64,000 bases of DNA from contig NZ_KB893316.1 of NCBI RefSeq assembly GCF_000374045.1, positions 62,001 to 126,000 of the forward strand, written 5' to 3'. Position numbers and translations under genes: made by a program. Below, piece after piece: positions 11,817 through 27,700 of the stretch. The notes beneath the pieces are model-generated. The model searched no databases. It was not told the DNA's origin and saw nothing but the letters and a program-made list of their open reading frames with translations. This stretch comes from Segetibacter koreensis DSM 18137 (lineage in GTDB: Bacteria; Bacteroidota; Bacteroidia; Chitinophagales; Chitinophagaceae). Numbering within the stretch: position 1 is the first letter of the stretch; each line of letters opens with the position of its first letter.

Positions 11817-11818
11817 AC

Positions 11819-12409
11819 ATGCTTCAGTTACTATACAAATACCTTATTCTACACAATAGAGCGAGTGTTCCTGGGGTAGGTGTTTTTTATATCAAACGTA
11901 ATTCTGCCAGGCTTGATTTTGCTAATAAAATATTTTTAGCCCCGACTTTACAAATAAATTTTAAATCGGACACTTCAGGTGCTGATAACAAAATCTATAC
12001 TTTTATTTCAAAAGAGCAAAAAATTGATGAAGCAGAAGCTAAAGGGCGGTACAATAATTTTGCGAATAAGCTAAAAGAAACGCTTGTAGAAAACAATAGT
12101 GTGGATCTGCCAGGTATAGGAGTGCTCACGCAAAATGCGGAAGGTCAGCTATTTTTTAAGGCAACTGTAGAGGTGAATGATTATTTTCCTCCGGTGACAG
12201 CGGAAAGGGTAATAAGAGAAAACTCTGAACACCAGATATTGGTTGGTGACCTTAACCGCACTAATAAGCAGATGAAAGAAGTGCTTGTGGATGACGTGGC
12301 AGACGCGTCCCGCTCAAAAGATTACTGGTGGATCTTTGCTATAGCTCTTGGTCTCATTGGTATTGCAACTATTGTTTATTATTATTTGCACAACGGAAGT
12401 TTGAAATAA
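11819..12409 (+). CDS. HU-CCDC81 domain protein with C-terminal membrane anchor
   Basis: A 196-residue protein. Residues 1-60 (LLYKYLILHNRASVPGVGVF) and roughly 70-150 (VDLPGIGVLTQNAEGQLFF) match the paired HU-CCDC81 domains of Bacteroidota. A single hydrophobic helix lies near the C-terminus (WWIFAIALGLIGIATIVYYY). Relatives often continue past the membrane helix into a periplasmic SPOR domain that binds denuded peptidoglycan; here the protein ends seven residues after the helix, so the SPOR part is missing. The start codon lies two bases after the barrel gene stop, showing operon organisation. Probable role in envelope or cell-division organisation, by family only. Confidence 0.8.
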   Translation: MLQLLYKYLILHNRASVPGVGVFYIKRNSARLDFANKIFLAPTLQINFKSDTSGADNKIYTFISKEQKIDEAEAKGRYNNFANKLKETLVENNSVDLPGIGVLTQNAEGQLFFKATVEVNDYFPPVTAERVIRENSEHQILVGDLNRTNKQMKEVLVDDVADASRSKDYWWIFAIALGLIGIATIVYYYLHNGSLK

Positions 12410-12621
12410 ATAGGTGTTTTTTACAGCATAAGAGAATATTGAACAATATCAAATAGTTTTGAATGTTGAGAAAGGAGCATTAATAGCTCGTTTGTTATGC
12501 TGATATTCTTACTCCTTATGAAACTGCTATAAATCGTGCCGTTCATTAAGCGAAGCAAAGTTTTTTGAGCCACATGGAAGGTGCGAAAGTTCTTTTTATG
12601 GCAAGGTGAGCGCGACTTTTT

Positions 12622-13743
12622 TTACTCGCGTTTTATTTCTGGATTTGATTTTACTTCTTCAGCTAATTTTGGCGGCTGTTCTTCATCTTTTTCATCGCCT
12701 AATAACATGCCCCATGGCTTCATACTTTCAATCCGGTCAAATACTACTTTGCTTATTGCAATTACAGGAATTGATAAAAACATACCTGGTATTCCCCAAA
12801 ACATTTCTCCTACAATAACTCCAATAACAGTAATCAACGCGTTGATCTTAACCTTTGAACCAACAATAACAGGAAGCAGTATATTACTGTCAACCAAATG
12901 CATCGCGACAATTGTAGCTATTACCAGTATAATTTTGGTAGTACTAGCTGCTGTACCTATAGTAATAATAGTGCTCAAGACCAAAGACGTAAATATGCCG
13001 ATATAAGGAATAATATTAAAAAGTCCGGTAATAAGGCCAAGTAAAATGGCATATTTTACTCCTATCAATAAAAATGCAACGCAGCACACCGCTGCCACAA
13101 TTCCCATTTCGAGTAAAAGGCCCAATATATATTTCCTGATAATGTACTCTACCTGGGCAACAATATCATAAACGGTTGTAGAGTTTTCTTCGGTAAATAC
13201 TGCTACCAAGAATTTTATTATTAGCCGCCGGTAAAATAGCAGGAAGAAAGTGTCTATCATAACGAAAACAAGGAACAACAAAACAGATGACAATGAAATT
13301 ACTGTAGCCCCTATGACACCGGCGCTTTCGGCCAGCATCCTTTGGGTTTCAGAATGTATGTAAGCCATTTGCTTATTTACATCAATATGAAATTTTACTG
13401 TTACCCAATTTTGCATTTGATTAATGGTATCCGAAAAGGCCTCTTTGAACAATGGCCAATCCTTCGCCAGATCAGAAATTTGCGACCCGACCACATAAAG
13501 TATCAGCGAGATAAACAAAAGCAGCAGAATTACCGATAATCCCGAAGCTGCACTTCGTGGTAACTTCAACTTTGTTTCAAAGAAACCCGCAAGCGGAAGA
13601 AGTGAAATGGCAAATAGAAAGGAAAATATAAGTGGAGATAGAATCTTTTTTCCTACGATAAATATAAAGCCTAGTGCAATAAGGCTAATAAGTATCATTG
13701 CAAGCTTTGTATAAAATGGGGTAGAAGTAGTTTTGGAAATCAT
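12622..13743 (-). CDS. AI-2E family transporter (PerM/UPF0118)
   Basis: A 373-residue integral membrane protein of the PerM-type permease family: N-terminal helices (LAMILISLIALGFIFIVG), a central soluble segment about residues 95-150, then a hydrophobic core with the conserved GLFNIIPYIGIF and VIVGSKVKINALITVIGVIVG stretches. Some members export autoinducer-2, others are sodium/proton antiporters; the name should not be read as evidence of quorum sensing. The C-terminal 30 residues are charged and cytoplasmic. Single gene, convergent with the HU-CCDC81 operon. Confidence 0.9.
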   Translation of the reverse strand: MISKTTSTPFYTKLAMILISLIALGFIFIVGKKILSPLIFSFLFAISLLPLAGFFETKLKLPRSAASGLSVILLLLFISLILYVVGSQISDLAKDWPLFKEAFSDTINQMQNWVTVKFHIDVNKQMAYIHSETQRMLAESAGVIGATVISLSSVLLFLVFVMIDTFFLLFYRRLIIKFLVAVFTEENSTTVYDIVAQVEYIIRKYILGLLLEMGIVAAVCCVAFLLIGVKYAILLGLITGLFNIIPYIGIFTSLVLSTIITIGTAASTTKIILVIATIVAMHLVDSNILLPVIVGSKVKINALITVIGVIVGEMFWGIPGMFLSIPVIAISKVVFDRIESMKPWGMLLGDEKDEEQPPKLAEEVKSNPEIKRE

Positions 13744-14405
13744 AGATTTAATTGAATTGATAAAAAGCTGTCTTATAAATGATTCTCAAGTTACCGAAGG
13801 AGAATTTGTTTTGCGCATAAAACCATCTTTTTATTAAATTGTTCATCAACCAGAAATAATAAATCTCTTGCCACCGAAAAAAATAATAAGGTGGGAAATT
13901 AATTGAACAATGAGAATAACAAACAAAACTTTTAGAAGATTTAGATAAACTTATTGTTATATCACTTATTGTTTTTTTAATTTTTCTCTTAAAGTAATTG
14001 ATAAGGAAACATTCTTTTTAGATAATTACTGTTATTTTTAGTTGCACCAAGTAATTGCAGGAAGAGATATGATAAATGTTACAAACCAGCTAAACGTTAA
14101 TCTTTGATATAGTGAGGAACAAAGTGAAACAGATTATAAGAAAATCTTTTGATTATTATATAATCTCCTTTTAGATTTTCTTTAGCCATGGTCAAATCAT
14201 GAGAGTTGGCAGACGAAGTTGTAGCGACTTGAACAGGAATTTAAATACTTCAATTTGCTTAATAATTAAAGAAAAGTAATTATAACAAATGCATTTAAAC
14301 GAAAGGTATAAATGCATTTGTGCTTTAGCTAGTATGGATCGAATAGGCCTTAAAAAATATTTACTTATTTTTAAATAATTATAATTAAATAAAACCGTAA
14401 AAATT
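13744..14405. other. Long AT-rich intergenic region between divergent genes
   Basis: 662 bases, strongly AT-rich, with no convincing gene. It contains the paired palindrome at 14286-14320 listed separately and presumably the promoters of the AI-2E and RidA-family genes. Confidence 0.5.
14286..14320. promoter_or_regulatory. Paired palindrome upstream of the RidA gene, candidate operator
   Basis: CAAATGCATTTA (14286-14297) is repeated as an exact inverted copy at 14309-14320 with an 11-base spacer. Each half also contains the 10-bp palindrome AAATGCATTT, so the element is both an inverted and a direct repeat with centres 23 bases apart, about two helical turns. This suits a dimer-of-dimers regulator site 85 bases before the RidA start. 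A hairpin role is also possible. Confidence 0.45.
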
Positions 14406-14873
14406 ATGAATGAACGTAGATCAGTAATGAAAAAAATTCTTGCCTCTGTTATTGGCTTTGCCGGATTTGGACTTGCCGCAAGTGCAAAGTCCAATAACAA
14501 TAGCAATTTGGAAAAGGAAACGTTTAATGTAGAGAAAGACCAGGATGTTCCGCTGTTTTCAGGAGCTACAAAATTTAACGGTCTTATTTTTATCGCGGGA
14601 AAAGGAGCGCACGTTGCACCGTTTGAAATTAAGGCTCACACCGAGATTGTACTAAAAGAACTTGAAAAAGAACTGGTAGCTGCGGGATCATCCATGGAGA
14701 AAGTTCTTAAAGTAGGTGTTTTTTTAAATGACATTGCTGACTACAAGGGAATGAATGAAGTGTATAAAGGCAGATTTGGAAAAAATCCTCCCGTTCGTAC
14801 AACTGTAGCTGTTGCAAAAGGAGGCGTTCCTGGAGATTCTTTGGTCGAAATGGACTGTATCGCTTACGTTTAG
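14406..14873 (+). CDS. Exported RidA-family enamine/imine deaminase
   Basis: A 155-residue YjgF/YER057c/UK114 protein. RidA trimers hydrolyse reactive enamine/imine intermediates released by PLP-dependent lyases to keto acids and ammonia. The catalytic-site Arg is present (Arg131 in PPVRTTVAVA) along with the late Glu148 (LVEMDCIAYV). Unusually for RidA, it starts with MNERRSVMKK followed by a hydrophobic stretch ending near AASAK. The RRxVMK pattern resembles a twin-arginine signal, so export of the folded protein is likely. It stands at the head of a cluster that includes a Tat-type PLP enzyme at 20773-21990, a natural source of the enamine. It ends at its own hairpin terminator. Confidence 0.87.
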   Translation: MNERRSVMKKILASVIGFAGFGLAASAKSNNNSNLEKETFNVEKDQDVPLFSGATKFNGLIFIAGKGAHVAPFEIKAHTEIVLKELEKELVAAGSSMEKVLKVGVFLNDIADYKGMNEVYKGRFGKNPPVRTTVAVAKGGVPGDSLVEMDCIAYV

Positions 14874-14946
14874 TAATAAATTTTTGTTTTTTATTCTAAT
14901 GTAAGAATTATTGTTACAGCATTAGTTTTAAAAATGGAAAAACTTG

Positions 14947-14979
14947 TTCCTTCCCTTTACTGAACATTTAGGGAAGGAA
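14947..14979 (+). terminator. Hairpin terminator after the RidA gene
   Basis: TTCCTTCCCT and AGGGAAGGAA form a perfect 10-bp stem with a 13-base loop, followed by an AT-rich but not purely T tract. It lies 74 bases after the stop. Confidence 0.55.
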
Positions 14980-15086
14980 TTTATATTACTGCCTTCTCCA
15001 GTCAAGTTGTTCTTCAATAGAAATGAACCAATTATTTTATAGCGAATGAGGAAAACTTTATAATCCTCTCTAAATTTTATATTTTA

Positions 15087-16373
15087 ATGAAAAAAATATT
15101 TTTACTTCTCTTTCTGTCAATTCCTATTACCCTTCTTTATTCACAACCGTATGCCATTGTAATAAAAGATGGTCATGTCATAGATCCTAAAAACAATATT
15201 GACGGCGTTATGGATATTGCAGTTAATGAAGGTAAGATCGTACAGGTAGCAAAAAATATCGATCCGAAACAGGCAATACAAGTGGTAAATGCCAAAGGTC
15301 TGTTAGTTACTCCCGGTTTGGTAGATATTCATTCGCACAATTTTTTCGGTACTGAGCCCGATCACCAATATGAAAACGGAAATCTTGCGCTTCCACCCGA
15401 TGGTTTTACTTTTCGTAATGGAGTTACTACAGTAGTAGATGCAGGAAGTTCAGGTTGGCGCACTTTCCCTACTTTCAAGGCTCAAACTATTGATCAATCA
15501 AAGACCAGGGTACTAGCTTTTTTAAATATTGTGGGTGAAGGAATGAGAGGTGGTTATGAGCAGAACTCAAACGATATGGACTCAAAAATGTCTGCCCTTG
15601 TTGCTAAAGGTAACAAAGATATTATTGTCGGTTTTAAAGTTGCACATTATGAAGGTCCGGAATGGACACCAGTTGATAAAGCTGTTGAAGCGGGAAAACA
15701 GGCAGGTGGAATTCCGGTAATGGTAGATTTTGGAGGAAGTAACCCGCCACTTTCCATAGAAGAATTATTTATGAAGCACCTGAGACCAGGAGATATTTTT
15801 ACACATTGTTTTGGACAACTTGGTACTAGGGAGTATATAGTTGACTTGCAAACAAATAAAGTAAAGCCTTTTGTTTGGGAAGCACAGAAACGCGGTATTG
15901 TTTTCGATGTGGGGTATGGCGGTATCAGTTTCGCTTTTTCCCAGGCTATTCCTGCTGTTAAAGAGGGATTTTATCCTAATTCAATCAGTACAGATATTCA
16001 CGTCGGAAGCATGAATAATGCAATGAAAGACATGCTTACAACCATGTCTAAATTTCTGGCAATGGGTATGGATTTGAAAAAAGTTATTACAGCAAGCACC
16101 TGGAATCCTTCCAGGGAAATTAAGCATGAGGAATTAGGAAATCTTTCTGTGGGATCTGGCGCAGACATAGCTATACTAAATATACGCGAGGGGAAATTTG
16201 GACTTTTTGACTACACTGGATATAAAATTGAAGCGAACAAAAAACTGGAATGTGAAATGACCATACGAGATGGCAAAATAGTGTATGATCTTAATGGTAT
16301 TGCAAACCCTATTGTCCCTCCAAAAAATGCTGCTGCGAATGCTGCTAACGTACAAAAGTCAGTAACTCATTAA
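15087..16373 (+). CDS. Exported amidohydrolase/deacetylase-family metallohydrolase (copy 1)
   Basis: A 428-residue amidohydrolase-superfamily enzyme of the dihydroorotase-like deacetylase group. A signal peptide (MKKIFLLLFLSIPITLLYSQ) precedes the usual N-terminal strand domain. Metal-centre residues are visible: HSH at 82-84 (GLVDIHSHNF), Lys184 in VGFKVAH, the probable carboxylated lysine, His240 in IFTHCFG and Asp303 in ISTDIHVGS. Relatives often sit beside SelA-fold ammonia-lyases and remove acyl groups from N-acylated amino acids or sugar acids. A close paralogue lies at 19417-20688. The next gene, a cytochrome-fused dehydrogenase, starts 43 bases downstream. I infer deacylation of an N-acyl compound outside the inner membrane. 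Confidence 0.87.
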   Translation: MKKIFLLLFLSIPITLLYSQPYAIVIKDGHVIDPKNNIDGVMDIAVNEGKIVQVAKNIDPKQAIQVVNAKGLLVTPGLVDIHSHNFFGTEPDHQYENGNLALPPDGFTFRNGVTTVVDAGSSGWRTFPTFKAQTIDQSKTRVLAFLNIVGEGMRGGYEQNSNDMDSKMSALVAKGNKDIIVGFKVAHYEGPEWTPVDKAVEAGKQAGGIPVMVDFGGSNPPLSIEELFMKHLRPGDIFTHCFGQLGTREYIVDLQTNKVKPFVWEAQKRGIVFDVGYGGISFAFSQAIPAVKEGFYPNSISTDIHVGSMNNAMKDMLTTMSKFLAMGMDLKKVITASTWNPSREIKHEELGNLSVGSGADIAILNIREGKFGLFDYTGYKIEANKKLECEMTIRDGKIVYDLNGIANPIVPPKNAAANAANVQKSVTH

Positions 16374-16416
16374 CGCATCAGTAAACCATCAATTACCGTC
16401 CAGAACACTTCACATC

Positions 16417-18177
16417 ATGAAATTACTTCTATATAAGCAAGCTACTTATATCACAGGGATTCTTATTGCGTTCTCTATTATTAGTTTCACTGCTTTTAAA
16501 AACAATAATCATTCTGCCAATTTAGATAATGCAGGATTATTTCTGCCGGCAAATTTTCAGGCAGTAGTAGTGGTAGATAGTTTGGAGGGCAGGGCAAGGC
16601 ATTTGGCTGTTAACAGAAATGGTGACATTTATGTAAAATTAAGATTTCCTGATTCTATAGGAGGAAATGTGGCTCTACGCGATACAAATAATGATGGAAG
16701 GGCTGATATCATACAAAAGTTTGATGACTATGAAGATAAGGGCAGCTATGGAACGGCAATGAGAATTTATAAAGGATATCTTTATTTTAGTTCCGAATTA
16801 AATGTTTTCCGGCAGAAATTAACACCGGGAAAATTAATTCCTGACGGTCCGATAGAATTAATTGTAAAGGATGATGATCCGCGTGGAAGACATGAACATG
16901 ATGCAAAGCCGATCGCCTTTGATGACTCAGGCCATATTTATGTGCCCTTCGGAGCACCATCGAATGCATGCCAGGAGCAAAACCGTGTTCCAGGTTCTCC
17001 CGGTATTTCTGATTGTCCATTACTCGAAGATCACGGTGGTATCTGGCGCTTTGATGCAGAAAAAACAGACCAAACACAAAAAGACGGGGTCAGGTTTGCA
17101 ACAGGACTAAGAAGTATAGTAGCAATAGATTGGAATAAGGCTGATAAAAATTTGTATTGCGTAATGCATGGAAGAGACGATATGCATTTGTTGTGGCCGG
17201 ATGTCTATAGTCAGTGGCAAAGTGCACTGCTTCCGTCGGAAGAATTTTTAAGAATAAAACAAGGTACAAATGCAGGATGGCCTTATTATTACTATGACCA
17301 AATTCAAAAAAAGAAACTCTTGAATCCCGAGTACGGCGGTGATGGAAAGAAAGCAGGTGATGGCAGTAAGTTCGAACAACCTTTAATCGGGTTTCCTGGA
17401 CATTGGGCTCCTAATGATTTATTTTTTTACACTGGTAATCAATTTCCTAAAAGATATAAAAACGGTGCTTTTATTGCTTTTCACGGTTCTACAAATCGGG
17501 GAACTTATCCGCAATCAGGTTTTTTTATAGGTTTTGTACCTTTTAAAAATGGAGCCCCTTCTGGGTCGTGGGAAATTTTTGCTGATGGTTTTGCAGAAAC
17601 AGAGCCTTTGGTAAGTGTAAGTGATGCAGTGTACCGCCCTATGGGATTAGCGATGGGCCCAGATGGCTCTCTGTACGTAAGTGATACGGAGAAGGGGAAA
17701 ATCTGGAAAATAATGTATAAAGGTGATAAGAAGTCTTTTGGAACAGCCCAGTTGGCAAAAATGGAAAAGAGAAAGTTGCTTCCTCATATTAAAACTCCTG
17801 ATGAAGTAAATGATAATCTCGTGAAAGGAATGCTGGAAGGAGGTGCAAAGACTTATGCGACTTATTGTATGCCTTGTCACCAGTTAAATGGAGAAGGTGA
17901 TGGAAACCGTTTTCCCCCGCTGGCTGATTCTGAGTGGGTAATTGGATTTAAATGGGGCGACAAGGAAAAACTTATTCGCCTGCTTCTTCAAGGTTTAGAA
18001 GGACCTATTGAAGTAAAAGGTAAACCATACAATAATGTTATGCCTGCCCACAGCTTTTTAAGCAATGAAGATGCTGCGCACGTCTTAACTTATATCAGAA
18101 ATAATTTTGGAAATAAAGGAATGCCAATTTCTGCAAGTGAAGTAGATGAAATAAGGAAAACCATTTCTTCGAAATAA
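16417..18177 (+). CDS. Sugar-dehydrogenase-like beta-propeller fused to C-terminal cytochrome c
   Basis: A 586-residue exported protein. Residues 45-430 are a beta-propeller of the soluble PQQ glucose/sorbosone dehydrogenase type, with HLAVNRNGDIYVKLRF, DDSGHIYVPFGAPSN and MGLAMGPDGSLYVSDT. Residues 470-586 are a class I cytochrome c with haem attachment at CMPCH (Cys484, Cys487, His488). Such fusions oxidise a sugar or polyol to its lactone or acid and pass electrons to the respiratory chain. The N-terminal hydrophobic segment is a signal peptide or anchor; no lipobox was seen. It is downstream of and probably cotranscribed with the amidohydrolase. Domain order is the reverse of its relative at 22351-24153. 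The cofactor is assumed; no PQQ synthesis gene is in the window. Confidence 0.85.
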   Translation: MKLLLYKQATYITGILIAFSIISFTAFKNNNHSANLDNAGLFLPANFQAVVVVDSLEGRARHLAVNRNGDIYVKLRFPDSIGGNVALRDTNNDGRADIIQKFDDYEDKGSYGTAMRIYKGYLYFSSELNVFRQKLTPGKLIPDGPIELIVKDDDPRGRHEHDAKPIAFDDSGHIYVPFGAPSNACQEQNRVPGSPGISDCPLLEDHGGIWRFDAEKTDQTQKDGVRFATGLRSIVAIDWNKADKNLYCVMHGRDDMHLLWPDVYSQWQSALLPSEEFLRIKQGTNAGWPYYYYDQIQKKKLLNPEYGGDGKKAGDGSKFEQPLIGFPGHWAPNDLFFYTGNQFPKRYKNGAFIAFHGSTNRGTYPQSGFFIGFVPFKNGAPSGSWEIFADGFAETEPLVSVSDAVYRPMGLAMGPDGSLYVSDTEKGKIWKIMYKGDKKSFGTAQLAKMEKRKLLPHIKTPDEVNDNLVKGMLEGGAKTYATYCMPCHQLNGEGDGNRFPPLADSEWVIGFKWGDKEKLIRLLLQGLEGPIEVKGKPYNNVMPAHSFLSNEDAAHVLTYIRNNFGNKGMPISASEVDEIRKTISSK

Positions 18178-18203
18178 AAGATGTTGAATTTACATAGTCA
18201 AAC

Positions 18204-18248
18204 AAAGCATATAAGAGGAAATTTATATTATTTCCTCTTATATGCTTT
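18204..18248. terminator. Bidirectional terminator between convergent genes
   Basis: A perfect 19-bp inverted repeat (AAAGCATATAAGAGGAAAT and its complement) with a 7-base loop, placed between a plus-strand stop at 18177 and a minus-strand stop at 18253. It separates the two arms of the exported oxidative cluster. Confidence 0.85.
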
Positions 18249-18252
18249 GATC

Positions 18253-19176
18253 CTATTGATTATTCTTTGTCATCTGCCATTCACGTCCTGGTTCGTCTAC
18301 TCTGAAAGTCTCTATGTTTTGCTGATCCTGTAGCGTAACATATGCTGTGCGACCGTCTTGTCCGCCAAAAGCAATATTGCTGGGAAGTTTTCCGATTAAA
18401 GTAATCTCTTTTAAAAGCTTGCCTTCCGGCGATACTTTTGCTACGACGCCTTTTCCGTGCCGGCAGATATATAAATTTCCTTTGGTATCACATCGCATTC
18501 CATCCATACCAAAATCAGGGAATTGAATTAATAACCTTTTATTACTGATTTTTCCATCTTCAGATAAATCATATACCCATACTTTGCGCTGAACAGACTC
18601 ATTTACATACAATCTTTTATTATCAGGGCTAACTTCTATTCCATTTGCAGTTCCCATATTATCTTCCAGTAAAGTTACTTTGCCGTCATTTCCAATAGTC
18701 CAGATGCGGCCGGTTCCTGCTTTCCAATTCGGATCGCTTGCATATAACCGGTCTCTGCTGTCAATTGCTATGTCATTCGGCTGACTCATCGAATCTTCAT
18801 GTGCAAATACGGTTAGTTGTTTTGTGCCCATATCTACTTTTAGTATATTATGATTAGTATAGTCCGCAATGTACATCTCACCCTTGCTGTTAAAACGGAT
18901 GCCATTACCGATACTTTTATTGGGCAGCTCGACAAAAATGCTTGCTTGTCCTGATGGAGTTACCATGCCGACGGTACCTTCATGTTCATAATTTACTGCG
19001 TATAACATCCCGGCTTTATCTACCGCTGGTCCTTCTGCACCAGAGGTAAAACTCTTTGCAGGGGTAAATGCTGTTGACTTAAATAGTTCGCCTGCATCAG
19101 CAGTTTTATGGGAAGCATTACATGAAATAGCTGTAAGAATAATTAAAAACTTTGCAACAAGAAACGATGTTTTCAT
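18253..19176 (-). CDS. SMP-30/gluconolactonase-family lipoprotein
   Basis: A 307-residue six-bladed-propeller protein of the SMP-30/gluconolactonase/LRE family, which hydrolyses sugar lactones with a Ca2+ or Zn2+ ion. The N-terminus ends in LTAISC, a lipobox, so it should be anchored in the membrane and exposed outside the cytoplasm. The usual metal ligands are visible as Glu in GAEGPAVD, Asn in SQPNDIAID and Asp in GMDGMRCD. Placed among sugar-dehydrogenase-like genes, it would open the lactone they produce. It reads towards the 18204-18248 terminator. Some relatives are strictosidine-synthase-like or other propeller hydrolases, so the substrate is not fixed. Confidence 0.83.
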   Translation of the reverse strand: MKTSFLVAKFLIILTAISCNASHKTADAGELFKSTAFTPAKSFTSGAEGPAVDKAGMLYAVNYEHEGTVGMVTPSGQASIFVELPNKSIGNGIRFNSKGEMYIADYTNHNILKVDMGTKQLTVFAHEDSMSQPNDIAIDSRDRLYASDPNWKAGTGRIWTIGNDGKVTLLEDNMGTANGIEVSPDNKRLYVNESVQRKVWVYDLSEDGKISNKRLLIQFPDFGMDGMRCDTKGNLYICRHGKGVVAKVSPEGKLLKEITLIGKLPSNIAFGGQDGRTAYVTLQDQQNIETFRVDEPGREWQMTKNNQ

Positions 19177-19317
19177 AAGAAAATATTTTCTTTAGTGTTT
19201 TTGCTTTTAGTATCATGATAGAATAGATAAGTAAAAGTATGAAGTATAGTTCGGTTAAAGCAATGATAGTACAAGAGTCTGACCGTAACTAAAGCAGAGT
19301 GAAGTTTTTGTGCTTGT

Positions 19318-19361
19318 AAACAAAAAGTTCCTAAAGAAAAAATCTTTGGGAACTTTTGTTT
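19318..19361 (-). terminator. Terminator of the amidohydrolase (copy 2) transcript
   Basis: Arms AAACAAAAAGTTCC and GGAACTTTTGTTT pair with one bulged A. The structure lies 56 bases beyond the minus-strand stop at 19417 and is followed in that direction by TTTACAAG. Confidence 0.6.
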
Positions 19362-19416
19362 GAACTACTACAAAATCTGTTTATTATTTTACAACATTAC
19401 TTTTTTATAAAAAAGT

Positions 19417-20688
19417 TTAATGACCAGAAGCCTTGGCATCAGTGAGCACAATTGGGGTAGCAATACCATTTAAATCATAAACAATTTTTCCTCCTCTGAT
19501 AGTCATTTCGCATTCAAAATTTTGTTTTGCATTTACCTTATAACCCATTCTATCCCATAGACCAAAGTCTCCCTGCCGCATATTTAATACGGCAATATCT
19601 GCAACTGCGCCGACAGAAAGATTGCCTAATTCTTCATGTTTTATAGCTTGTGCAGGTGCCCATGTACCTGCTTTTATTACCGCCGGAACATCCATCCCCA
19701 TAGCTACAAAAGTTGACATTACATTCAGCATATCTTTCATAGCTGCATTCATACTTCCGGTATGTAAATCTGTACTCATTGTATTAGGAAAAAAACCGGC
19801 TTTTATAGCGGGTAATGCCTGTCGAAAATCAAAGCTTCCTCCACCATAACCTACATCAAAAATAATCCCCTTCTTCTGAGCATCCTTTACAAAAGGCTTT
19901 AATTGCCTGCTTTTTAAGTCGACAATAGGATCTCGCCTGTCTAATTCGGTAAAGGTGTGTGTGTAAATATCACCCGGGCGTAGATGTTTGAAAAAAAGAT
20001 CTTCTATAGAGAGTGGGGGATGAGTATCGTCGCCGCCAAAATCAACTATGACCGGTATGTCAGCTAACTTTCCTGCTTCTACCGCCCGGTCTACAGGTGT
20101 CCATTCTGCGGCTTCATAATGAGCAACTTTAAATCCAACGATATAATCTTTATACTGCCGTGCTGCATTGGCAGATAATTTTGAATTCATATCATTTGCA
20201 TCCTGTTCATAAGCTCCGCCTCTCATGCCCTCGCCCACAATATTTAAAAAAGACAATACGCGGGTGTAAGAGTGATCAATAATATTTTTCTTAAACGTAG
20301 GGAATGATTTCCAACCTGCACCACCGCAATCTACAACTGTAGTGACACCAACGCGGAAAGTGAAGCCATCAGGAGGAAGGGCATCAAGGCCGTTACTGAG
20401 GTAATGATCTGGTTCTGTGCCGGCAAAAACATGCTCATGCATATCAATCAAACCAGGGGTAACATATTTGCCTTTTGCATCAACAACCTGCCGACCCTGC
20501 CTGGCATCAATGTTTTTAGCTACTAAAGCAATTTTGCCATCATTGACTGCTACATCCATTATACCATTGATATTGTTTTTAGCGTCGATTACATGCCCGC
20601 CTTTTATTACGATATTATAGGTTTGACACTTTAGAATAGTTATAAACAGGAATAGCAAAGAAAAAAGTAAAAATGATTTTTTTAGCAT
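19417..20688 (-). CDS. Exported amidohydrolase/deacetylase-family metallohydrolase (copy 2)
   Basis: A 423-residue paralogue of the enzyme at 15087-16373, matching it over nearly the whole length (shared LNIVGEGMRGG, VGFKVAHYE, EELGNLSVG). It has a signal peptide (MLKKSFLLFSLLFLFITILK). The metal motif is HEH (GLIDMHEHVF) where copy 1 has HSH; the Lys (GFKVAH), His (YTHTF) and Asp (STDLHTGS) are kept. It lies 84 bases downstream of the SelA-fold PLP enzyme gene on the same strand, the classic pairing for this family, so the two probably act in sequence: deacylation, then ammonia elimination. Substrate inferred, not shown. Confidence 0.87.
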   Translation of the reverse strand: MLKKSFLLFSLLFLFITILKCQTYNIVIKGGHVIDAKNNINGIMDVAVNDGKIALVAKNIDARQGRQVVDAKGKYVTPGLIDMHEHVFAGTEPDHYLSNGLDALPPDGFTFRVGVTTVVDCGGAGWKSFPTFKKNIIDHSYTRVLSFLNIVGEGMRGGAYEQDANDMNSKLSANAARQYKDYIVGFKVAHYEAAEWTPVDRAVEAGKLADIPVIVDFGGDDTHPPLSIEDLFFKHLRPGDIYTHTFTELDRRDPIVDLKSRQLKPFVKDAQKKGIIFDVGYGGGSFDFRQALPAIKAGFFPNTMSTDLHTGSMNAAMKDMLNVMSTFVAMGMDVPAVIKAGTWAPAQAIKHEELGNLSVGAVADIAVLNMRQGDFGLWDRMGYKVNAKQNFECEMTIRGGKIVYDLNGIATPIVLTDAKASGH

Positions 20689-20772
20689 TTGTATAATTTA
20701 AAATCAAATTTTTTATAGGAAAGTGTGAAAATCTGTGAGTTTTCGAAAACTAGTAAAATAAATTTTTATGAT

Positions 20773-21990
20773 CTAAGCTGATGCTTTTGTCAGCTCTTCA
20801 TTTATCCTGGTTGCTACAATTTTTTCCTGACCGGGCTTCAACATAAAAACAGTTATATTGATGGTATTGTCAGCAAAACTCATTACTTCGATTGACGGAT
20901 TACCCTCCCTTAATCTTGCCTGCAAATCTTTAGGTGTTGTTTTAACTACAGACGTATCCCACGAAATTTTTAAAGCAGGAGTGTGGTTTGCGATGGGAGG
21001 CACCGTAACTTCTGTGGTTACACCTTTTACTTTTTTTGCAGCGTTTTCAATGATTGCTATTTTTTCTTCCCATTCCTTCCATTCTTTCTCATGGTCTTGC
21101 TTTACATACCGGTCTAATGCAGCATACATACCTAATATTTCCTCTTTGTTTACTTTCATTCCACGACCTATATTACCGCCTCGGGGAGGAGCGCTGAGAC
21201 GGGCAGCAGCAACAAGGTCTTTTTTGCCATAAAGCAAGCCTGCGCTTTGTGGTCCCCGTATTGCTTTACCACCTGAAACACAGATGAGATCAAACCCCAT
21301 TTCACTATACTTCCAAAGATTTTCTACCGGTGGAATATCTGCAGCTATATCAATTATAGTAGGAATATTATGCTTTTTTGCTACTTCAAGCCATTCTTTG
21401 TGTAAAATCTTACCATGAGGTGTGCTTTCATTTAAAAAATACATTAAAGCCGTTTTTGCATTTATAGCTTTTTCCAAGTCATCCATTGTTTCAACGACCA
21501 CAGGTTTAATACCGGTGTTGGTAAGTGCATGAATGTAATCGTGATTATGTCCTTTCTGTACAATTACTTCATTTTTTTCAAAACTGTCAACATTTGGTAG
21601 CTGTGCCACTTTTTCAAGGTCCATTCCGGTAAGTACTCCTGCAGTCCCTAATACCAGTGCCGACCAACAGCCTGCTGTTACCATAGCAGCCTCTGCGTGA
21701 CATAAAGCTGCAATTTTTTCTCCCGCTTTATCCTGTACTTCATCGTACATAATAAATTCTTTTGACGAACTATTAATAGCTTCCATCACTTCATCTGGCA
21801 TTAGCGAAGCAGTCATAAACGTGTATGTACCGGCAGCGTTTATAAAAGTACGCAGACCTAATTCTTTTACCATGTCACGTTTAGGTTTGTTAGATGGGGC
21901 TGCAATCGCTGATTTAAATGGAACAGCTGAGATAGCTGCACCTGTTAATGGTCCTAAAGAAAAATACTTTAAAAGGTCCCTGCGTTTCAT
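20773..21990 (-). CDS. Tat-exported SelA/DgaE-like PLP-dependent enzyme
   Basis: A 405-residue fold-type I PLP enzyme of the selenocysteine-synthase-like group that includes D-glucosaminate-6-phosphate ammonia-lyase. Lys242 in CVSGGKAIRGP is the expected Schiff-base lysine and Asp214 in TIIDIAADIPP the residue under the pyridine ring; NAAGTYTFM near residue 51 is a family signature. It begins MKRRDLLKYF, a textbook twin-arginine motif (RRDLLK), then a hydrophobic stretch ending near AIAA, so it should be exported folded with its cofactor. The neighbouring amidohydrolase and the exported RidA at 14406 fit a deacylase, ammonia-lyase, imine-hydrolase series. True aminotransferase activity is unlikely for this subgroup. 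Confidence 0.86.
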   Translation of the reverse strand: MKRRDLLKYFSLGPLTGAAISAVPFKSAIAAPSNKPKRDMVKELGLRTFINAAGTYTFMTASLMPDEVMEAINSSSKEFIMYDEVQDKAGEKIAALCHAEAAMVTAGCWSALVLGTAGVLTGMDLEKVAQLPNVDSFEKNEVIVQKGHNHDYIHALTNTGIKPVVVETMDDLEKAINAKTALMYFLNESTPHGKILHKEWLEVAKKHNIPTIIDIAADIPPVENLWKYSEMGFDLICVSGGKAIRGPQSAGLLYGKKDLVAAARLSAPPRGGNIGRGMKVNKEEILGMYAALDRYVKQDHEKEWKEWEEKIAIIENAAKKVKGVTTEVTVPPIANHTPALKISWDTSVVKTTPKDLQARLREGNPSIEVMSFADNTINITVFMLKPGQEKIVATRINEELTKASA

Positions 21991-22350
21991 CGTTATTTTT
22001 TTAATTTATTTAGAATAATAAATGCTTTTACTGCGCTTAAACTTATTATTTAAAATCTCTGTAAAAGGTATGACAGGTTTATGTAAGAAAACTGAAAAAT
22101 TACTTTTAAATGATGAAGAAAAGAAGTTATCCTCTTCTTGATCATCTACAGTTTTATGGGGTATTCCAACATACTCTTGTTAATAAATTATCGTTTTTTG
22201 CCTCTGAAACACCTTGTCTTTTCAATCCTTCTGAGTATTTGCGGTCTGTCTGTCTGCTTTAAAGTTATCGGTATCGAAAATTTTTGAAACATTTTGTCAT
22301 CTGTATCATTTCCCGAAATGCACATTTTTATTACTGCAATATTTCCAATA
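21991..22350. other. Intergenic region within the minus-strand arm
   Basis: 360 bases between the cytochrome-dehydrogenase stop and the PLP-enzyme start. A 45-codon minus-strand frame (22188-22325) begins with an ATG and is Lys/Arg-rich, but no family or promoter supports it. No terminator was seen, so read-through between the two genes is possible. Confidence 0.4.
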
Positions 22351-24153
22351 TCAGTTTTTACTGGCAATTTTTTTGGAATTTGTTTTTACTTTTCCGCTTT
22401 CATCTTTCGGAAGTGTTATTTTCCATATATCGCCCCCTTTGCCGCCGTATGAAATAATATATACTTCATTTCCTATCATCACCGCATCTGTTGGTTCTTT
22501 AAAACCTTCAACAATACGGGTGGTCTTAACAAAATAATTATCAGAAGCCTTGTCATATGTCAATTGCAAGTGTAATAAATCTTCACCCTCATTCGTAAAA
22601 GGCCTCATCATAGAGGAAGTAGCCCCTAATGAGTAGCGAATCACAAAGCCATCACCCTTAAAGTCTTTTCCAAGAATTTTTTTATTATCAAAAAATAAAC
22701 CCAGGGGACTGCAATGTGCAGTAAAAGTGCTGACAGTAACACCTGTTATATCTCCGTCCAGTATTTTTCCTGAATGTCCCCGGTACTCATTTGCATCTGG
22801 TCCTAAATTTTGCACGCCTGGTGAAAAAGTAACACCTGCAGGAATTTTTGGAAATGTTGGATCAGTATGAAAATATTTTACTTCCCACGAGTGAGAAGTT
22901 CTGTTGATAAAGGGATCGGTGTTAGGATCTGGTTTCCAGTCATTGTACTGTTGCGGATTTTCAATACCACCCATTATCCAGGGAAAACCATAATGATGAT
23001 TTTGTCTTATCCAAAACATATCTTCCGGCATATCGTAATCAGCAGAGTTAGAAACGGCAAAAAGATTGCCCTGGGGATCAAAAGCAAGGTCGTAAGCATT
23101 GCGTATGCCTTCTGCATAAAGATAACCATCGGCAAGTAATTTTGCTTTGTCATCTGTTAATAACACGTCTTTTGCATCAACAGGAAACCTGAAAATTTTG
23201 GAGGTAAGGTTATTGTCGCGGGCATTTGGATATAATCCTCCATTATCCTGCACTTCTCCATGATCTGTTCTTGCACCGCTGTTTACATAAATATATTTGC
23301 CATCAGGACTTACTTCTAATGCATTCCACCCATGATCGAAAATTGTTTTGTTTGAACCATAATCGACTGTATTGAAAACCTCCGTCATTTCAGCCGGCTT
23401 TGAGGGATACAAATTGTAGCGCACCATTCTTCCTTTAGTACTCTTGTTATCATTTGTACTAACATTGCCGCATAAAAAAAGGCTGTTGTTTAAAAACGCC
23501 GCACCTTGTAATCTCGGAATTCCGTGGTCTTTAGCTGTGAAAATTTTCTCTGCCTTCGGTTGCCCGTTTTTTAAATTTTTTATCTGAAAAACATTGCCAT
23601 CAAAAGTCGTATACCATAGATCGCCGGTGACGGGATTGTGCAAGATCCGTACAGCAAATGAATCAACTTCCATTATGTGATCAACTTTTATATCTGGCCG
23701 CAATGCCTTTGGTGGATTTGAAGAAGCCTTAATATCTGGAATTTTCCTGATAAAAGACACAAGTTGCCAGCGTTGTTCTTCTGATAATGAATTTTTAAAG
23801 GCAGGCATAGGTCCACGGCCGTTACTTAATTTATAAAATATAGCTCCGTCTGTTTGCTTCTGCACTCTGTCTCTATGAAAATTTGCAGGCTTTGGATCAA
23901 AACCTGAACCTGCTGCACCATCTCCAAAACCTGTTTCTCCATGGCAGGTTCTGCAATAAATGTTGTAAAGGTTGTGTCCTTTTTCTTCCATCTCCATAGT
24001 ATTCTTAAATGGGCTTTTTAACTCATTTGCATCTGCTGGAGCAGTCCAGTTTTTATCAGGTGTCTTTGATGAATTACAGGCAACAAATTCTACAATAATA
24101 AAAAGATAAAAACAACCTATTAATAAAAAAGCTTTTAGCCTTTTATTCTGCAT
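22351..24153 (-). CDS. Cytochrome c fused to sugar-dehydrogenase-like beta-propeller (lipoprotein)
   Basis: A 600-residue lipoprotein: the N-terminal hydrophobic segment ends in EFVAC (Cys26). Residues 45-145 are a cytochrome c domain with CRTCH (Cys67, Cys70, His71) and a distal Met in GRGPMPAFKN. The rest is a sorbosone/PQQ glucose dehydrogenase-like propeller, with LEVSPDGKYIYVNSGARTDH and DLAFDPQGNLFAVSNSADYD. It should oxidise a sugar or sugar alcohol at the outer face of a membrane and deliver electrons through its own haem. The domain order is opposite to that of 16417-18177. It is the most upstream gene of the minus-strand arm. Confidence 0.85.
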   Translation of the reverse strand: MQNKRLKAFLLIGCFYLFIIVEFVACNSSKTPDKNWTAPADANELKSPFKNTMEMEEKGHNLYNIYCRTCHGETGFGDGAAGSGFDPKPANFHRDRVQKQTDGAIFYKLSNGRGPMPAFKNSLSEEQRWQLVSFIRKIPDIKASSNPPKALRPDIKVDHIMEVDSFAVRILHNPVTGDLWYTTFDGNVFQIKNLKNGQPKAEKIFTAKDHGIPRLQGAAFLNNSLFLCGNVSTNDNKSTKGRMVRYNLYPSKPAEMTEVFNTVDYGSNKTIFDHGWNALEVSPDGKYIYVNSGARTDHGEVQDNGGLYPNARDNNLTSKIFRFPVDAKDVLLTDDKAKLLADGYLYAEGIRNAYDLAFDPQGNLFAVSNSADYDMPEDMFWIRQNHHYGFPWIMGGIENPQQYNDWKPDPNTDPFINRTSHSWEVKYFHTDPTFPKIPAGVTFSPGVQNLGPDANEYRGHSGKILDGDITGVTVSTFTAHCSPLGLFFDNKKILGKDFKGDGFVIRYSLGATSSMMRPFTNEGEDLLHLQLTYDKASDNYFVKTTRIVEGFKEPTDAVMIGNEVYIISYGGKGGDIWKITLPKDESGKVKTNSKKIASKN

Positions 24154-24754: not shown

Positions 24755-27700
24755 ATGAATAAATTGACAATAGCTTTACCACTCTTTCTTTTGACATCGC
24801 TGCTATCTACAGCTCAGCAAAAAGCTACTATTAAAGAGACTACAAAAGTTTTTAAAACGTATCCCTTTTCTGACCCAGACCCCATACCTCAAATGGGAAA
24901 AATATATCCATATTTCAGGTTTGATGGTTATACAAATACACCTGTTCAAAAAGAATGGAAAGTGGTCGAAATGGAAAATGATTATATTAAGATATTAATA
25001 ATGCCAGAGGTAGGTGGTAAGATTTGGTCAGCAATAGAGAAGTCAACGGGTAAGTCTTTTATCTATTACAATCATACAGTAAAGTTTCGCGATGTGGGAA
25101 TGCGTGGACCGTGGACCAGTGGAGGAATTGAACCTAATTATGGTATTATAGGACATACGCCCAATTGCGCCACGCCTGTAGATTATACAACTATTAAAAA
25201 AGCCGACGGAAGTGTTAGTTGTGTAATAGGAGTTCTGGATTTACTTACCAGGACATCGTGGCGAATTGATATTAATTTGCCTAAAGACAAGGCCTATCTT
25301 ACCACAACTTCTTTCTGGTATAATTCATCAGCTTTAGAACAACCATATTATACGTGGATGAATACAGGCCTTAAAGCCAGTGGAAATCTTGAATTCATTT
25401 ATCCGGGAACAAAGTATATAGGACATGCCGGCGAATACAGCGATTGGCCAATCAATAAACAAAATGGCAAGAACATTTCATTTTATGAGAATAATGATTT
25501 TGGCGGCCCAAAGTCTTACCACGTTTTTGGAAAGTATACTGACTTCTTCGGAGGCTACTATCATGACGACGATTTTGGAATGGGCAGGTACTCCAATCAC
25601 GATGATAAACCAGGAAAAAAAATATGGATATGGGGCTTATCAAATGAAGGAATGATTTGGGAAAAACTTCTTACAGATACAGATGGACAATATGTAGAGG
25701 TACAGAGTGGACGATCATTTAACCAGGCTGCGGAACAAAGTACATTCACTCCTTTTAAACACAAAGGGTTTTTGCCAAAGACAACGGATGTATGGACCGA
25801 ATATTGGTTTCCTGTTTTAAAGACCAAAGGCTTTGTCGCTGCAAATAATTATGGTGCTCTTAACCTGAAACAAGAAAATGGATTTTTAAAGATATATTTC
25901 TCGCCATTACAAAAAATAGATGATGCATTGGTTATAAGAGATGGAGATAAAATTTTCTATTCAAAAACACTGCAATTACATACCCTGCAGGTGTTTAAAG
26001 ATTCTGTAAAGATTAATACTATCCCAACGCAGCTAAAAGCAACACTTGGAAATAATAAACTTCAATATGATGCAGCTCCTACAGCCAATGTAATTAGCCG
26101 CCCTGTTCAAAGTCCATCTGATTTTGACTGGAACACTGCTTACGGCCTATACCTGCAGGGAAGAGAAGATATACGTCAAAAATATTATGTACCGGCAGAG
26201 AATAAATTAAGGGAATCCCTGCAAAAAGAGCCGTATTATGTACCCGCCCTTACAAGCCTTGCAATGGTGTTGTATAGAAATATGCAGTATGATTCTGCTT
26301 TAAGCGTAGTAAAAAAAGCTTTGTCTGTAGATACATATGATGAAGCGAGTAATTATTATTATGGGCTTATAAATAATAAATTAGGAAACCTAACAGATGC
26401 TAAGGATGGATTTGACCTGGCTGCAATGGGAGCAGAGTATCGAAGCGCTGCTTATGTAGCCCTTGCAAACATATATTTTAAAGAAAATGAATTAACAAAA
26501 GCTACAGAATATGCAAACAAAAGTATTGCTTATAATCGTTATGCCATTGACGCCTATCAACTACTCGCTATAATTCATCGTGAGCAAAAAAATCAGAATG
26601 CGGCAATGAAAATACTTGATACCATTCAGAGGTACGATCCTCTTAATCATTTTGCCGGCTTTGAAAAGTTTCTGTGGAAGCCTACAGAAGAAAATAAAAA
26701 AGCGTTTACCGGTTTAATAAGAAGTGAAATGCCGACAGAGACTTTTCTTGAATTAGCGATATGGTATAATAATGCAGGTAGAAGAAATGATGCCGCAAAA
26801 TTATTAAAGAGTTCTCCTTCAAATGCTGAAGTATTGTACTGGCAGGCATTCCTTGAAAACAGACCATTAAATGTTTCTCTGATTCATCCCGACATGGTTT
26901 TTCCCTTTCGCCCTGAAACTGCTGACGTATTGAAAGGTTTATTGCAGAAAAATGATAATTGGCTTATAAAATATCACTTGGCGCTCATTGAGTGGAACTA
27001 TAATAACATAGAGTCAGCAAAACAGCTTTTTGAGCAAATTGGAAACACGCCTGACTATCCGCCCTTTTATGCTGCAAGAGCCAATTTTAATATGACGAAC
27101 GACAGCAGTATAGTATTAAATGACTTGCAGCAGGCAAGGAAAATGGATAAAAACCAATGGCGCTATGGCAAAAACCTGGTAAACTACTATTTATCGCACA
27201 GAAATTATAACATGGCCTTGCAGGTTGCAGAAGAATGTAAAAGCCAGTTTAAAGGAAATTTTATTTTAGACATGCTGTATGCTAAAACACTGTTACAAAA
27301 CAAAAAATATGCTGAAGCAAATAACTTACTTAAAACAATGCGGATACTTCCAAACGAAGGAGCTACAGGGGGCAGACAATTGTATAAAGAAACGCAACTA
27401 ATGTTGGCACTTCAGCAAATGAAGATTGGTGATTATGCCAAAGCACTCCAATATATAGATTCTGCAAGAATATGGCCTGAAAACCTTGGAGTGGGTAAAC
27501 CATATAGTGAGGATATAGATGAAAGGCTGGAAGATTGGCTTGCCTACGAAAGTTATACAAAACAGGGAAACGCGACAGCGGCAAAGGAAATGCTGGATAA
27601 AATACTTTCAAAGCCAGCAAATGGTTCATCCGTGAATAATCTTGTTAGTGCCTGGGCTTTACAAAAAACAGGAAAAGACAAGCAGGCAAAAAAGCTTTTA

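What the first reader, a model, noticed from the sequence alone, without database searches (positions are those of the whole stretch)
14406..24153. Candidate exported oxidative pathway for an N-acylated amino sugar or aldonic acid
Seven neighbouring genes, all with export signals, supply a logical series: two cytochrome-fused sugar dehydrogenases (substrate to lactone), an SMP-30 lactonase (lactone to acid), two amidohydrolase/deacetylases (remove the acyl group), a SelA/DgaE-like PLP enzyme (ammonia elimination) and RidA (hydrolyses the resulting enamine/imine). One substrate that fits every step is N-acetylglucosamine via N-acetylglucosaminate and glucosaminate to 2-keto-3-deoxygluconate. 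I recall, without being able to check it, a chitin-oxidation route described in marine bacteria with deacetylation and deamination of N-acetylglucosaminate. A version running outside the inner membrane with respiratory electron delivery would be new to me.
Basis: partly seen in the sequence, partly recalled or inferred. Interest (0 to 1): 0.72.

Follow-up and report, generated by a model that had tools for sequence, protein, structure and literature searches.

The report
Exported amino-sugar-acid breakdown gene set
A Bacteroidota genome carries a set of exported enzymes, kept together in relatives, that looks like a pathway for stripping the acyl group and the nitrogen from oxidised amino sugars outside the inner membrane; the substrate has not been tested.

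Summary
The seven genes are there, intact, at the stated coordinates, with N-terminal export features (motif and hydrophobicity only). Families are confirmed by Pfam/NCBIfam and, for both cytochrome fusions, by fold search (quinoprotein sugar dehydrogenases). The group is real: of 294 family genomes all 31 with the PLP enzyme also have the amidohydrolase, against 3 of 263 without it; 51 of 58 PLP copies lie within 12 kb of one. A twin-arginine motif is in 130 of 130 PLP proteins. Relatives add an exported RraA-family (aldolase-type) protein and a BASS symporter, or instead a 2-keto-3-deoxygalactonate kinase, a KDPG-type aldolase and a galactonate-type transporter. Both sets point to a 2-keto-3-deoxy sugar acid as product, favouring deacylation then ammonia elimination of a 2-amino-2-deoxy-aldonate. 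N-acetylglucosaminate is plausible, unproven. The recalled marine (ong) pathway exists but is cytoplasmic, with different deacetylase and deaminase families; RidA is shared. Unexpected: the amidohydrolases have Asp/Glu where three of four solved relatives align a metal-site His. Against: no PqqE over the cut-off and no AA10 LPMO in the genome; 34 of 71 loci show neither downstream half; no activity data.

The parts
14406..14873 (+). RidA-family protein with N-terminal twin-arginine motif (ERRSVMKK); presumed enamine/imine hydrolase
   Evidence: PF01042 69.3 bits, cut-off 27.3; twin-Arg motif in 54 of 62 relatives; R131 among positions at least 90% conserved in 62 sequences
15087..16373 (+). 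AH1, exported amidohydrolase/deacetylase family (PRK09237); presumed N-deacylase
   Evidence: NF006689 447.9 bits, cut-off 371; H82, H84, H240, D303 in 131 of 131, K184 in 128 of 131; D214 (Asp 123, Glu 8 of 131) where 3 of 4 solved relatives align His
16417..18177 (+). GSDH/AA12-like quinoprotein sugar dehydrogenase propeller fused to C-terminal cytochrome c
   Evidence: PF07995 36.2 bits (cut-off 25) and PF00034; model pLDDT 83.7, best PDB fold 6jt5 pyranose dehydrogenase PQQ domain, E 1.1e-20
18253..19176 (-). exported SMP-30/gluconolactonase-family protein; presumed aldonolactonase
   Evidence: PF08450 152.2 bits, cut-off 26.3; family present in 19 of 84 distinct PLP loci of 15 kb or more
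19417..20688 (-). AH2, second exported amidohydrolase of the same family (68% identical to AH1)
   Evidence: NF006689 431.5 bits, cut-off 371; identity
20773..21990 (-). DgaE/SelA-like PLP enzyme with twin-arginine signal (MKRRDLLKYFSL); presumed ammonia-lyase on a 2-amino-2-deoxy-aldonate
   Evidence: TIGR01437 1.8e-55 but below cut-off; solved D-glucosaminate-6-P ammonia lyase 7lc0 E 1.2e-29; K242 and D214 among positions at least 97% conserved in 130 sequences; twin-Arg 130 of 130
22351..24153 (-). N-terminal cytochrome c fused to a quinoprotein-glucose-dehydrogenase-like propeller
   Evidence: PF13442 2.5e-12; model pLDDT 71.6, best PDB folds 1cq1/1c9u, E 9.4e-15 and 2.2e-14

Best explanation
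The cluster encodes an exported (periplasmic or membrane-attached) catabolic module for N-acylated 2-amino-2-deoxy sugars and their aldonic acids. Proposed order: the cytochrome-fused quinoprotein dehydrogenases oxidise the sugar at C1 and pass electrons to the respiratory chain; the SMP-30 protein opens the lactone; an amidohydrolase removes the N-acyl group; the Tat-exported PLP enzyme eliminates ammonia from the 2-amino-aldonate; RidA hydrolyses the enamine to a 2-keto-3-deoxy acid. That acid is then either cleaved outside by an exported RraA-family aldolase-type enzyme with products taken up by a BASS symporter, or imported and handled by 2-keto-3-deoxygalactonate kinase and KDPG-type aldolase. 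Shown here: genes, families, export motifs, folds, linkage and the two alternative downstream gene sets. Inferred: every reaction, the order, the substrate (an N-acetylhexosamine or its aldonate is my first guess) and the compartment of each step.
For: Linkage: 31 of 31 PLP genomes have the amidohydrolase against 3 of 263 others; 51 of 58 PLP copies within 12 kb of one. RraA-family protein in 29 of 31 PLP genomes against 43 of 263 others. Of 84 distinct PLP loci of 15 kb or more: amidohydrolase 71, a Rid protein 56, GSDH-cyt 43, BASS 28, RraA 25. Alternative half DGOK, Eda and (in four) an MFS in 5 loci, in none of the 71 amidohydrolase loci together with RraA/BASS; scanned in one of them, L089: PF05035 1.4e-51, TIGR01182 over cut-off, D-galactonate transporter model TIGR00893 below its cut-off. 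[quoted passage not shown] Amino-sugar neighbours, without a background control: NagB-like, PIG-L de-N-acetylase, N-acylglucosamine 2-epimerase, sulfatase with SGSH_C domain. RraA, PLP, RidA, a second PLP-dependent protein, amidohydrolase and lactonase in one run in an acidobacterium, with Tat/Sec-type N-termini on the four translated.
Against: No enzyme of this clade has a tested activity that I found. The PLP enzyme is below the DgaE cut-offs. A metal-site His of the amidohydrolase family is replaced by Asp/Glu, so even deacylase activity is not safe. In 71 loci with the amidohydrolase, 34 show neither downstream half within 10 kb; 13 of 84 loci have no amidohydrolase; 7 of 58 PLP copies, the genome's own C8 paralogue among them, are not within 12 kb of one. 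An RraA member has also been shown to act as a dehydratase/decarboxylase (PMC8563752). No PqqE over the cut-off, so PQQ would have to be scavenged or made otherwise. In the window's own genome the RraA and BASS genes lie on other contigs. Export rests on motifs, not on SignalP or experiment.
Confidence: 0.55

Rival explanations
1. The module degrades N-acyl-D-amino acids or similar non-sugar N-acyl compounds: the amidohydrolase frees the amine, the PLP enzyme eliminates ammonia from a beta-substituted amino acid, RidA clears the enamine, and the sugar dehydrogenases and lactonase belong to a neighbouring sugar-oxidation function.
For: The marine route's own deacetylase is related to D-aminoacylases (PMC12017989); the RidA family is generally tied to amino-acid PLP lyases (recalled); 41 of 84 loci lack GSDH-cyt and 65 of 84 lack SMP-30.
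Against: A dehydrogenase of either type is near PLP in 53 of the 71 amidohydrolase loci; downstream sets are those of 2-keto-3-deoxy sugar acids; SusC/SusD, CBM9, sulfatase, NagB and PIG-L neighbours.
Confidence: 0.2
2. The amidohydrolase is a lactonase or lactam/ester hydrolase rather than an N-deacylase, and the substrates enter un-acylated (glucosamine, galactosamine oxidised to the amino-aldonolactone).
For: Altered metal site (Asp/Glu for His); loci without SMP-30 are the majority (SMP-30 in 19 of 84); the solved family members carry uninformative names. An ester activity of the related Atu3266 group is recalled, not from a call.
Against: NCBI names the family amidohydrolase/deacetylase; SMP-30 and amidohydrolase occur side by side in the window; one locus adds a separate PIG-L de-N-acetylase, which could cut either way.
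Confidence: 0.2
3. Loose aggregate: an accessory gene island in which unrelated exported enzymes happen to be adjacent.
For: The PLP enzyme is absent from the four congeners in the family sample, and synteny with congeners ends at the gene 11819-12409.
Against: The same families recur together in other families of the phylum and in an acidobacterium.
Confidence: 0.05

Closest known systems
Oxidative chitin (ong) pathway of Pseudoalteromonas prydzensis (PMC9537276)
   Same: Predicted logic: deacetylate N-acetylglucosaminate, deaminate to 2-keto-3-deoxygluconate; a RidA protein (OngD) needed for growth on N-acetylglucosaminate
   Different: OngB is a D-aminoacylase-type enzyme with a Cys/His/His site (PMC12017989), OngC is described as a D-amino acid deaminase; both cytoplasmic after import; no dehydrogenase or RraA protein appears in the passages seen; reported in Gammaproteobacteria plus one Betaproteobacterium
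[quoted passage not shown]
   Same: Homologous PLP enzyme, E 1.2e-29 over 40-372, catalytic Lys and Asp aligned
   Different: Twin-arginine motif, scores below both curated DgaE cut-offs, no sugar kinase in the cluster
PRK09237 / EF_0837 amidohydrolase family (PDB 8je0, 2ics, 2ogj, 8wzy)
   Same: Over the NF006689 cut-off; near full-length alignment to four solved members
   Different: Signal peptide; Asp or Glu in 131 of 131 at the place where 2ics, 2ogj and 8wzy align His; in 8je0 a His is two columns away in the printed alignment
AA12 / soluble quinoprotein sugar dehydrogenases
   Same: Fold of both propellers
   Different: Fused to cytochrome c at opposite ends; linked to PLP lyase and deacylase genes
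RraA-like KDGR dehydratase/decarboxylase FlDet of alginate catabolism (PMC8563752) and HMG/CHA aldolase (PMC5065237)
   Same: RraA-family proteins acting on 2-keto-3-deoxy or 4-hydroxy-2-oxo acids
   Different: Relatives here carry a hydrophobic N-terminus (32 of 33) and often sit beside a BASS symporter; the Arg/Asp pair is conserved in 31 of 31, an Asp 21 residues before the Arg in 17 of 31

Membership tests
[quoted passage not shown]
   147.4 against 600 and 188.3 against 385.3 bits
[quoted passage not shown]
   K242 and D214 align with Lys and Asp of 7lc0 (their roles are recalled); at least 97% conserved in 130
[quoted passage not shown]
   Tat motif in 130 of 130 argues against, no assay
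PRK09237 amidohydrolase/deacetylase family | Curated score NF006689 | tested here: met
   447.9 and 431.5 against 371
PRK09237 amidohydrolase/deacetylase family | His at the place of D214 (metal ligand on strand beta-5; role inferred from the superfamily) | tested here: not met
   Asp 123, Glu 8 of 131; His aligned in 3 of 4 solved members, two columns away in the fourth
ong oxidative chitin pathway | OngB D-aminoacylase-type deacetylase | tested here: not met
   PpOngB (9kb1) matches AH1 only at E 7.2e-5 over residues 19-86
ong oxidative chitin pathway | OngC D-amino acid deaminase | tested here: inconclusive
   The PLP enzyme hits SelA/DgaE and other fold-type-I-like models, but OngC itself was not compared
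ong oxidative chitin pathway | RidA protein OngD | tested here: met
   RidA family in the window and RidA or RidB in 56 of 84 loci; same family, orthology not tested
ong oxidative chitin pathway | Cytoplasmic deacetylation and deamination | tested here: inconclusive
   Export motifs, no localisation data
Quinoprotein sugar dehydrogenase (GSDH/AA12) | Propeller fold | tested here: met
Quinoprotein sugar dehydrogenase (GSDH/AA12) | PQQ bound | tested here: inconclusive
   Binding residues not examined; own genome has no PqqE over the cut-off, two weaker hits of the kind that all 14 control genomes also give; scavenged PQQ not excluded
RidA | PF01042 gathering score | tested here: met
   69.3 against 27.3; TIGR00004 cut-off not reached, 66.1 against 106.25
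SMP-30/gluconolactonase | PF08450 gathering score | tested here: met
   152.2 against 26.3
RraA-type class II pyruvate aldolase (partner gene) | Arg/Asp pair of HMG/CHA aldolase (R123, D124) | tested here: met
   31 of 31, alignment to 3noj, residues from PMC5065237
RraA-type class II pyruvate aldolase (partner gene) | Aldolase activity on 2-keto-3-deoxy acids | not testable with these tools
   needs assay

The most novel reading that the evidence does not exclude
A complete amino-sugar catabolic route run outside the inner membrane: periplasmic oxidation with respiratory electron delivery, periplasmic deacylation by a metal-site-altered amidohydrolase clade, periplasmic PLP-dependent deamination, periplasmic cleavage of the 2-keto-3-deoxy acid by an exported RraA-family aldolase, and uptake of pyruvate (and acetate) instead of the sugar. 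It would be an unphosphorylated Entner-Doudoroff-like pathway in the periplasm, evolved independently of the marine ong route, with a sister version in the same genome that starts from a Tat-exported aldonate dehydratase (L059).
Probability: 0.3. Interest if true: 0.82.

Novelty: new variant of a known kind. Interest (0 to 1): 0.6.

Why it matters
Deamination of amino sugars and aldol cleavage of keto-deoxy acids are known as cytoplasmic steps. A conserved exported set, with Tat-carried PLP enzyme and RidA, would mean that some Bacteroidota and Acidobacteriota harvest electrons, acetate, ammonia and perhaps pyruvate from oxidised amino sugars before the carbon skeleton crosses the inner membrane. 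It gives a ready candidate for how such bacteria use oxidised chitin or glycosaminoglycan products, and a testable function for several unassigned exported enzyme clades (PRK09237 with Asp site, Tat SelA-like proteins, exported RraA).

Tried and rejected
Considered and rejected: chance adjacency (co-occurrence); that the deacetylase is an OngB-type enzyme; that the second cytochrome protein is not a dehydrogenase fold. Led nowhere: an empty site in congeners (in the five congener stretches that reach further, no window gene beyond 12409 matched, so no simple insertion is seen); papers naming the solved relatives 8je0, 8t7j, 8wzy or Atu3266/EF0837 (two irrelevant listings); prior descriptions of an exported glucosaminate route (search listings: two empty, the rest not about this by title and abstract, not opened); cog3964 (one listing, not opened). 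Rhizobium, Mesorhizobium and Thermomicrobium plasmid relatives of the amidohydrolase showed no DgaE-like PLP partner among the annotated genes in the stretches viewed; a Rhizobium PLP relative sits with RidA and an ABC transporter.

Rows dropped or unseen: one search used PLP hits down to 1.2e-27 and amidohydrolase hits down to 1.4e-75; one amidohydrolase fragment (G205, 8.1e-22) and all weaker hits were left out, and the list was cut below about 1e-9. In some searches at most six to eight first-look candidates a genome were scored, so copy numbers are lower bounds. Of the three genomes with amidohydrolase but no PLP hit, G142 (60% complete) has a 36-residue PLP fragment at a contig edge (7.0e-4) and G129 is 75% complete; G139 is complete. 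Loci under 15 kb (24 of 108) were left out of the counts. Three N-terminally cut PLP and two cut amidohydrolase proteins were left out.
Full report
WHAT IS THERE. The window lies at G000:C3:62001-126000 of a 6.10 Mb, 73-contig genome. Its family is taken to be Chitinophagaceae because stretches of two family genomes (G008, G045) match named Flavihumibacter and Ginsengibacter records. Between 14406 and 24153 there are seven complete genes in two convergent groups: on + RidA, amidohydrolase AH1 and a GSDH propeller with C-terminal cytochrome c; on - a cytochrome c with C-terminal propeller, a DgaE/SelA-like PLP enzyme, amidohydrolase AH2 and an SMP-30 protein. AlphaFold models built from alignments of relatives (25 and 33 sequences) matched solved quinoprotein sugar dehydrogenases best: 1cq1/1c9u for the - strand protein (moderate model, pLDDT 71.6; TM-scores 0.42 by query, 0.54-0.55 by target), 6jt5 and the AA12 enzyme 6h7t for the + strand protein (pLDDT 83.7; TM-score by target 0.73-0.75). 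So both look like sugar-dehydrogenase folds; PQQ binding was not tested.

EXPORT. The PLP enzyme and RidA begin with twin-arginine motifs, the others with hydrophobic segments. Across fetched relatives the motif RR-x-hydrophobic-hydrophobic in the first 75 residues is in 130 of 130 PLP proteins used, 11 of 12 of a longer PLP paralogue type, and 54 of 62 RidA proteins (five of the other eight have RR with another spacing); a hydrophobic N-terminal stretch is in 135 of 139 amidohydrolases, 61 of 63 GSDH-cyt, 37 of 38 cytochrome-propellers, 25 of 27 SMP-30 and 32 of 33 RraA proteins. A twin-arginine signal makes sense for a PLP enzyme, which folds with its cofactor before export (established knowledge). 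No signal-peptide program was at hand and no background rate was computed.

CONSERVATION. In 294 genomes of the family, strong PLP hits occur in 31 and strong amidohydrolase hits in 34; all 31 have both, and 3 of the 263 without PLP have the amidohydrolase (Fisher p 7.7e-39). Of 58 PLP hits 51 lie within 12 kb of an amidohydrolase, of 60 amidohydrolase hits 53 within 12 kb of a PLP gene. In a phylum-wide sample 8 of 395 genomes have the PLP enzyme at E 1e-25: it is an accessory module. It is absent from the four congeners in the family sample. Related genomes are not independent, so the p-values overstate.

THE MISSING HALF. Two proteins recur next to the module in relatives: an exported RraA-family protein (PF03737 62.0 bits, cut-off 24.5) and a BASS-type symporter (PF01758 143.3 bits, cut-off 24.3; nearest NCBIfam models PanS and bass, both below cut-off, as are the RraA models). 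A long operon (L036) reads RidA, PLP, GSDH-cyt, PLP variant with C-terminal extension, AH, AH, GSDH-cyt, PLP, AH, SMP-30, RraA, BASS; a minimal one (L043-L045) reads RidA, PLP, AH, RraA, BASS. RraA occurs in 29 of 31 PLP genomes against 43 of 263 others (p 3.7e-18). In five other loci (L078, L081, L082, L088, L089) relatives of a 2-keto-3-deoxygalactonokinase and a KDPG-type aldolase, and in four of them an MFS protein, take that place; the copies of L089 were scanned: PF05035 1.4e-51, TIGR01182 over its cut-off, and TIGR00893 D-galactonate transporter below its cut-off. Among 71 distinct amidohydrolase-containing loci of 15 kb or more, 32 have RraA or BASS, 5 have DGOK or Eda, none has both, 34 have neither within 10 kb. 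With only five cases the exclusion is suggestive, not strong. Both halves are what one expects downstream of a 2-keto-3-deoxy sugar acid, the product that DgaE-type elimination plus RidA would give from a 2-amino-2-deoxy-aldonate (inference).

THE WINDOW'S OWN GENOME. No RraA or BASS hit lies in the window; five RraA-family genes (four on C13, one on C5) and one BASS gene (C13) lie elsewhere. At C13 two RraA genes, the BASS gene and a twin-arginine galactonate-dehydratase-like enolase protein sit together (L059), a parallel exported route from a plain aldonate to the same kind of product (inference). A cluster of Eda, an enolase-family relative, an MFS relative and DGOK without obvious signals is on C73. 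A second PLP paralogue on C8 lies beside SusC/SusD, a CBM9 protein and a PQQ-propeller dehydrogenase with cytochrome c (PF01011 1.9e-194), with no amidohydrolase within 12 kb. No PqqE over the cut-off (other PQQ genes were not searched) and no AA10 LPMO were found; oxidised chitin monomers, if used, would come from the cell's own dehydrogenases or from neighbours.

SUBSTRATE. Amino-sugar hints from neighbours: a NagB-like gene (PF01182 over, TIGR00502 below cut-off) directly upstream of PLP in L087, L093 and L097, an N-acylglucosamine 2-epimerase-like protein in L087, a PIG-L de-N-acetylase in L040 (and a relative of it in L095), DUF5009/HGSNAT-like proteins in 7 and sulfatases in 11 of 84 loci, the one sulfatase scanned having an SGSH_C domain. 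On a Haloarcula plasmid a more distant PLP relative lies next to an AGE-family epimerase and near a family 8 polysaccharide lyase and a sulfatase. These counts have no background control, and several loci are close relatives. They favour a hexosamine derivative but do not pick glucose, galactose or another configuration; the parallel PLP/amidohydrolase pairs of some loci may serve different ones (inference).

ACTIVE SITES. [quoted passage not shown] In the amidohydrolases H82, H84, H240 and D303 are invariant in 131 and K184 in 128, but position 214 is Asp (123) or Glu (8), where 2ics, 2ogj and 8wzy align a His; in 8je0 the printed alignment puts the His two columns further on. The acidobacterial member also has Asp there. 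That this is the beta-5 metal ligand is inferred from the superfamily. It may mark a changed metal centre and leaves the reaction open. In the exported RraA proteins the Arg/Asp pair of HMG/CHA aldolase is kept in 31 of 31, an Asp 21 residues earlier in only 17 of 31.

OUTSIDE THE PHYLUM. A Granulicella plasmid carries RraA, PLP, RidA, a second PLP-dependent protein, amidohydrolase and a lactonase in one run; its PLP and RidA proteins have twin-arginine N-termini and its amidohydrolase and RraA hydrophobic ones. So the exported module, RraA included, spans at least two phyla.

COMPARISON WITH PRINT. OngB is a subtype V, D-aminoacylase-like amidohydrolase (PMC12017989; passages) and only distantly like AH1. 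The text reports the pathway in Gammaproteobacteria and one Betaproteobacterium. A haloarchaeal paper proposes glucosamine, glucosaminate and a DgaE homologue (PMC12343721; passages). RraA-family enzymes with relevant activities: HMG/CHA aldolase (PMC5065237; passages and introduction) and an alginate-pathway dehydratase/decarboxylase (PMC8563752; passages). Searches for an exported version (listings only) showed nothing that looked relevant in the held open-licence library; most subscription papers are not in it.

VERDICT. Observation confirmed; interpretation partly supported and extended. Most likely an exported deacylation-deamination module for 2-amino-2-deoxy sugar acids (0.55), the fully periplasmic version down to pyruvate being the boldest reading not excluded (0.3).

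Noticed in passing
L059 (G000:C13:362001-382000), 11186-16465: Twin-arginine galactonate-dehydratase-like enolase protein between two exported RraA genes and next to the BASS gene: a possible parallel exported aldonate route in the same genome.
   Followed up: partly
AH1 residue 214 (window 15726-15728) and relatives: A His of the PRK09237 amidohydrolases (aligned in three of four solved members) is Asp or Glu in 131 of 131 exported members.
   Followed up: partly
L033, L036, L037 and others (PLPx): A second PLP paralogue type, about 36-37% identical, with a C-terminal extension of roughly 140 residues, sits inside the longest operons.
   Followed up: no
L100, L101, L108-L111, L114, L115, L120, L122, L131: In Larkinella and Dyadobacter loci the cytochrome c and the propeller of the cytochrome-propeller protein are separate adjacent genes.
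   Followed up: no
L133, L136, L138, L142: The PLP gene is flanked by a sodium:solute symporter (ActP-like in L133, below cut-off) and an LctP-family lactate permease (over cut-off), as expected if acetate and pyruvate-like acids arise outside the inner membrane.
   Followed up: partly
L132, L139, L141, L143-L145, L148 and one copy in L078: A PLP subclade of 8 sequences (support 0.992) with no amidohydrolase within two genes.
   Followed up: no
window 24755-27844: DUF5107 plus TPR-repeat protein with a hydrophobic N-terminus beside the module; not among the recurrent neighbours.
   Followed up: no
window 41519-45226: Large protein with an N,N-dimethylformamidase-like domain, DUF4082 and Ig domains and a type IX secretion sorting tail.
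   Followed up: no
window 12409 onward: In five congener stretches long enough to tell, no window gene beyond 11819-12409 matched; what follows appears specific to this genome within the genus sample.
   Followed up: partly
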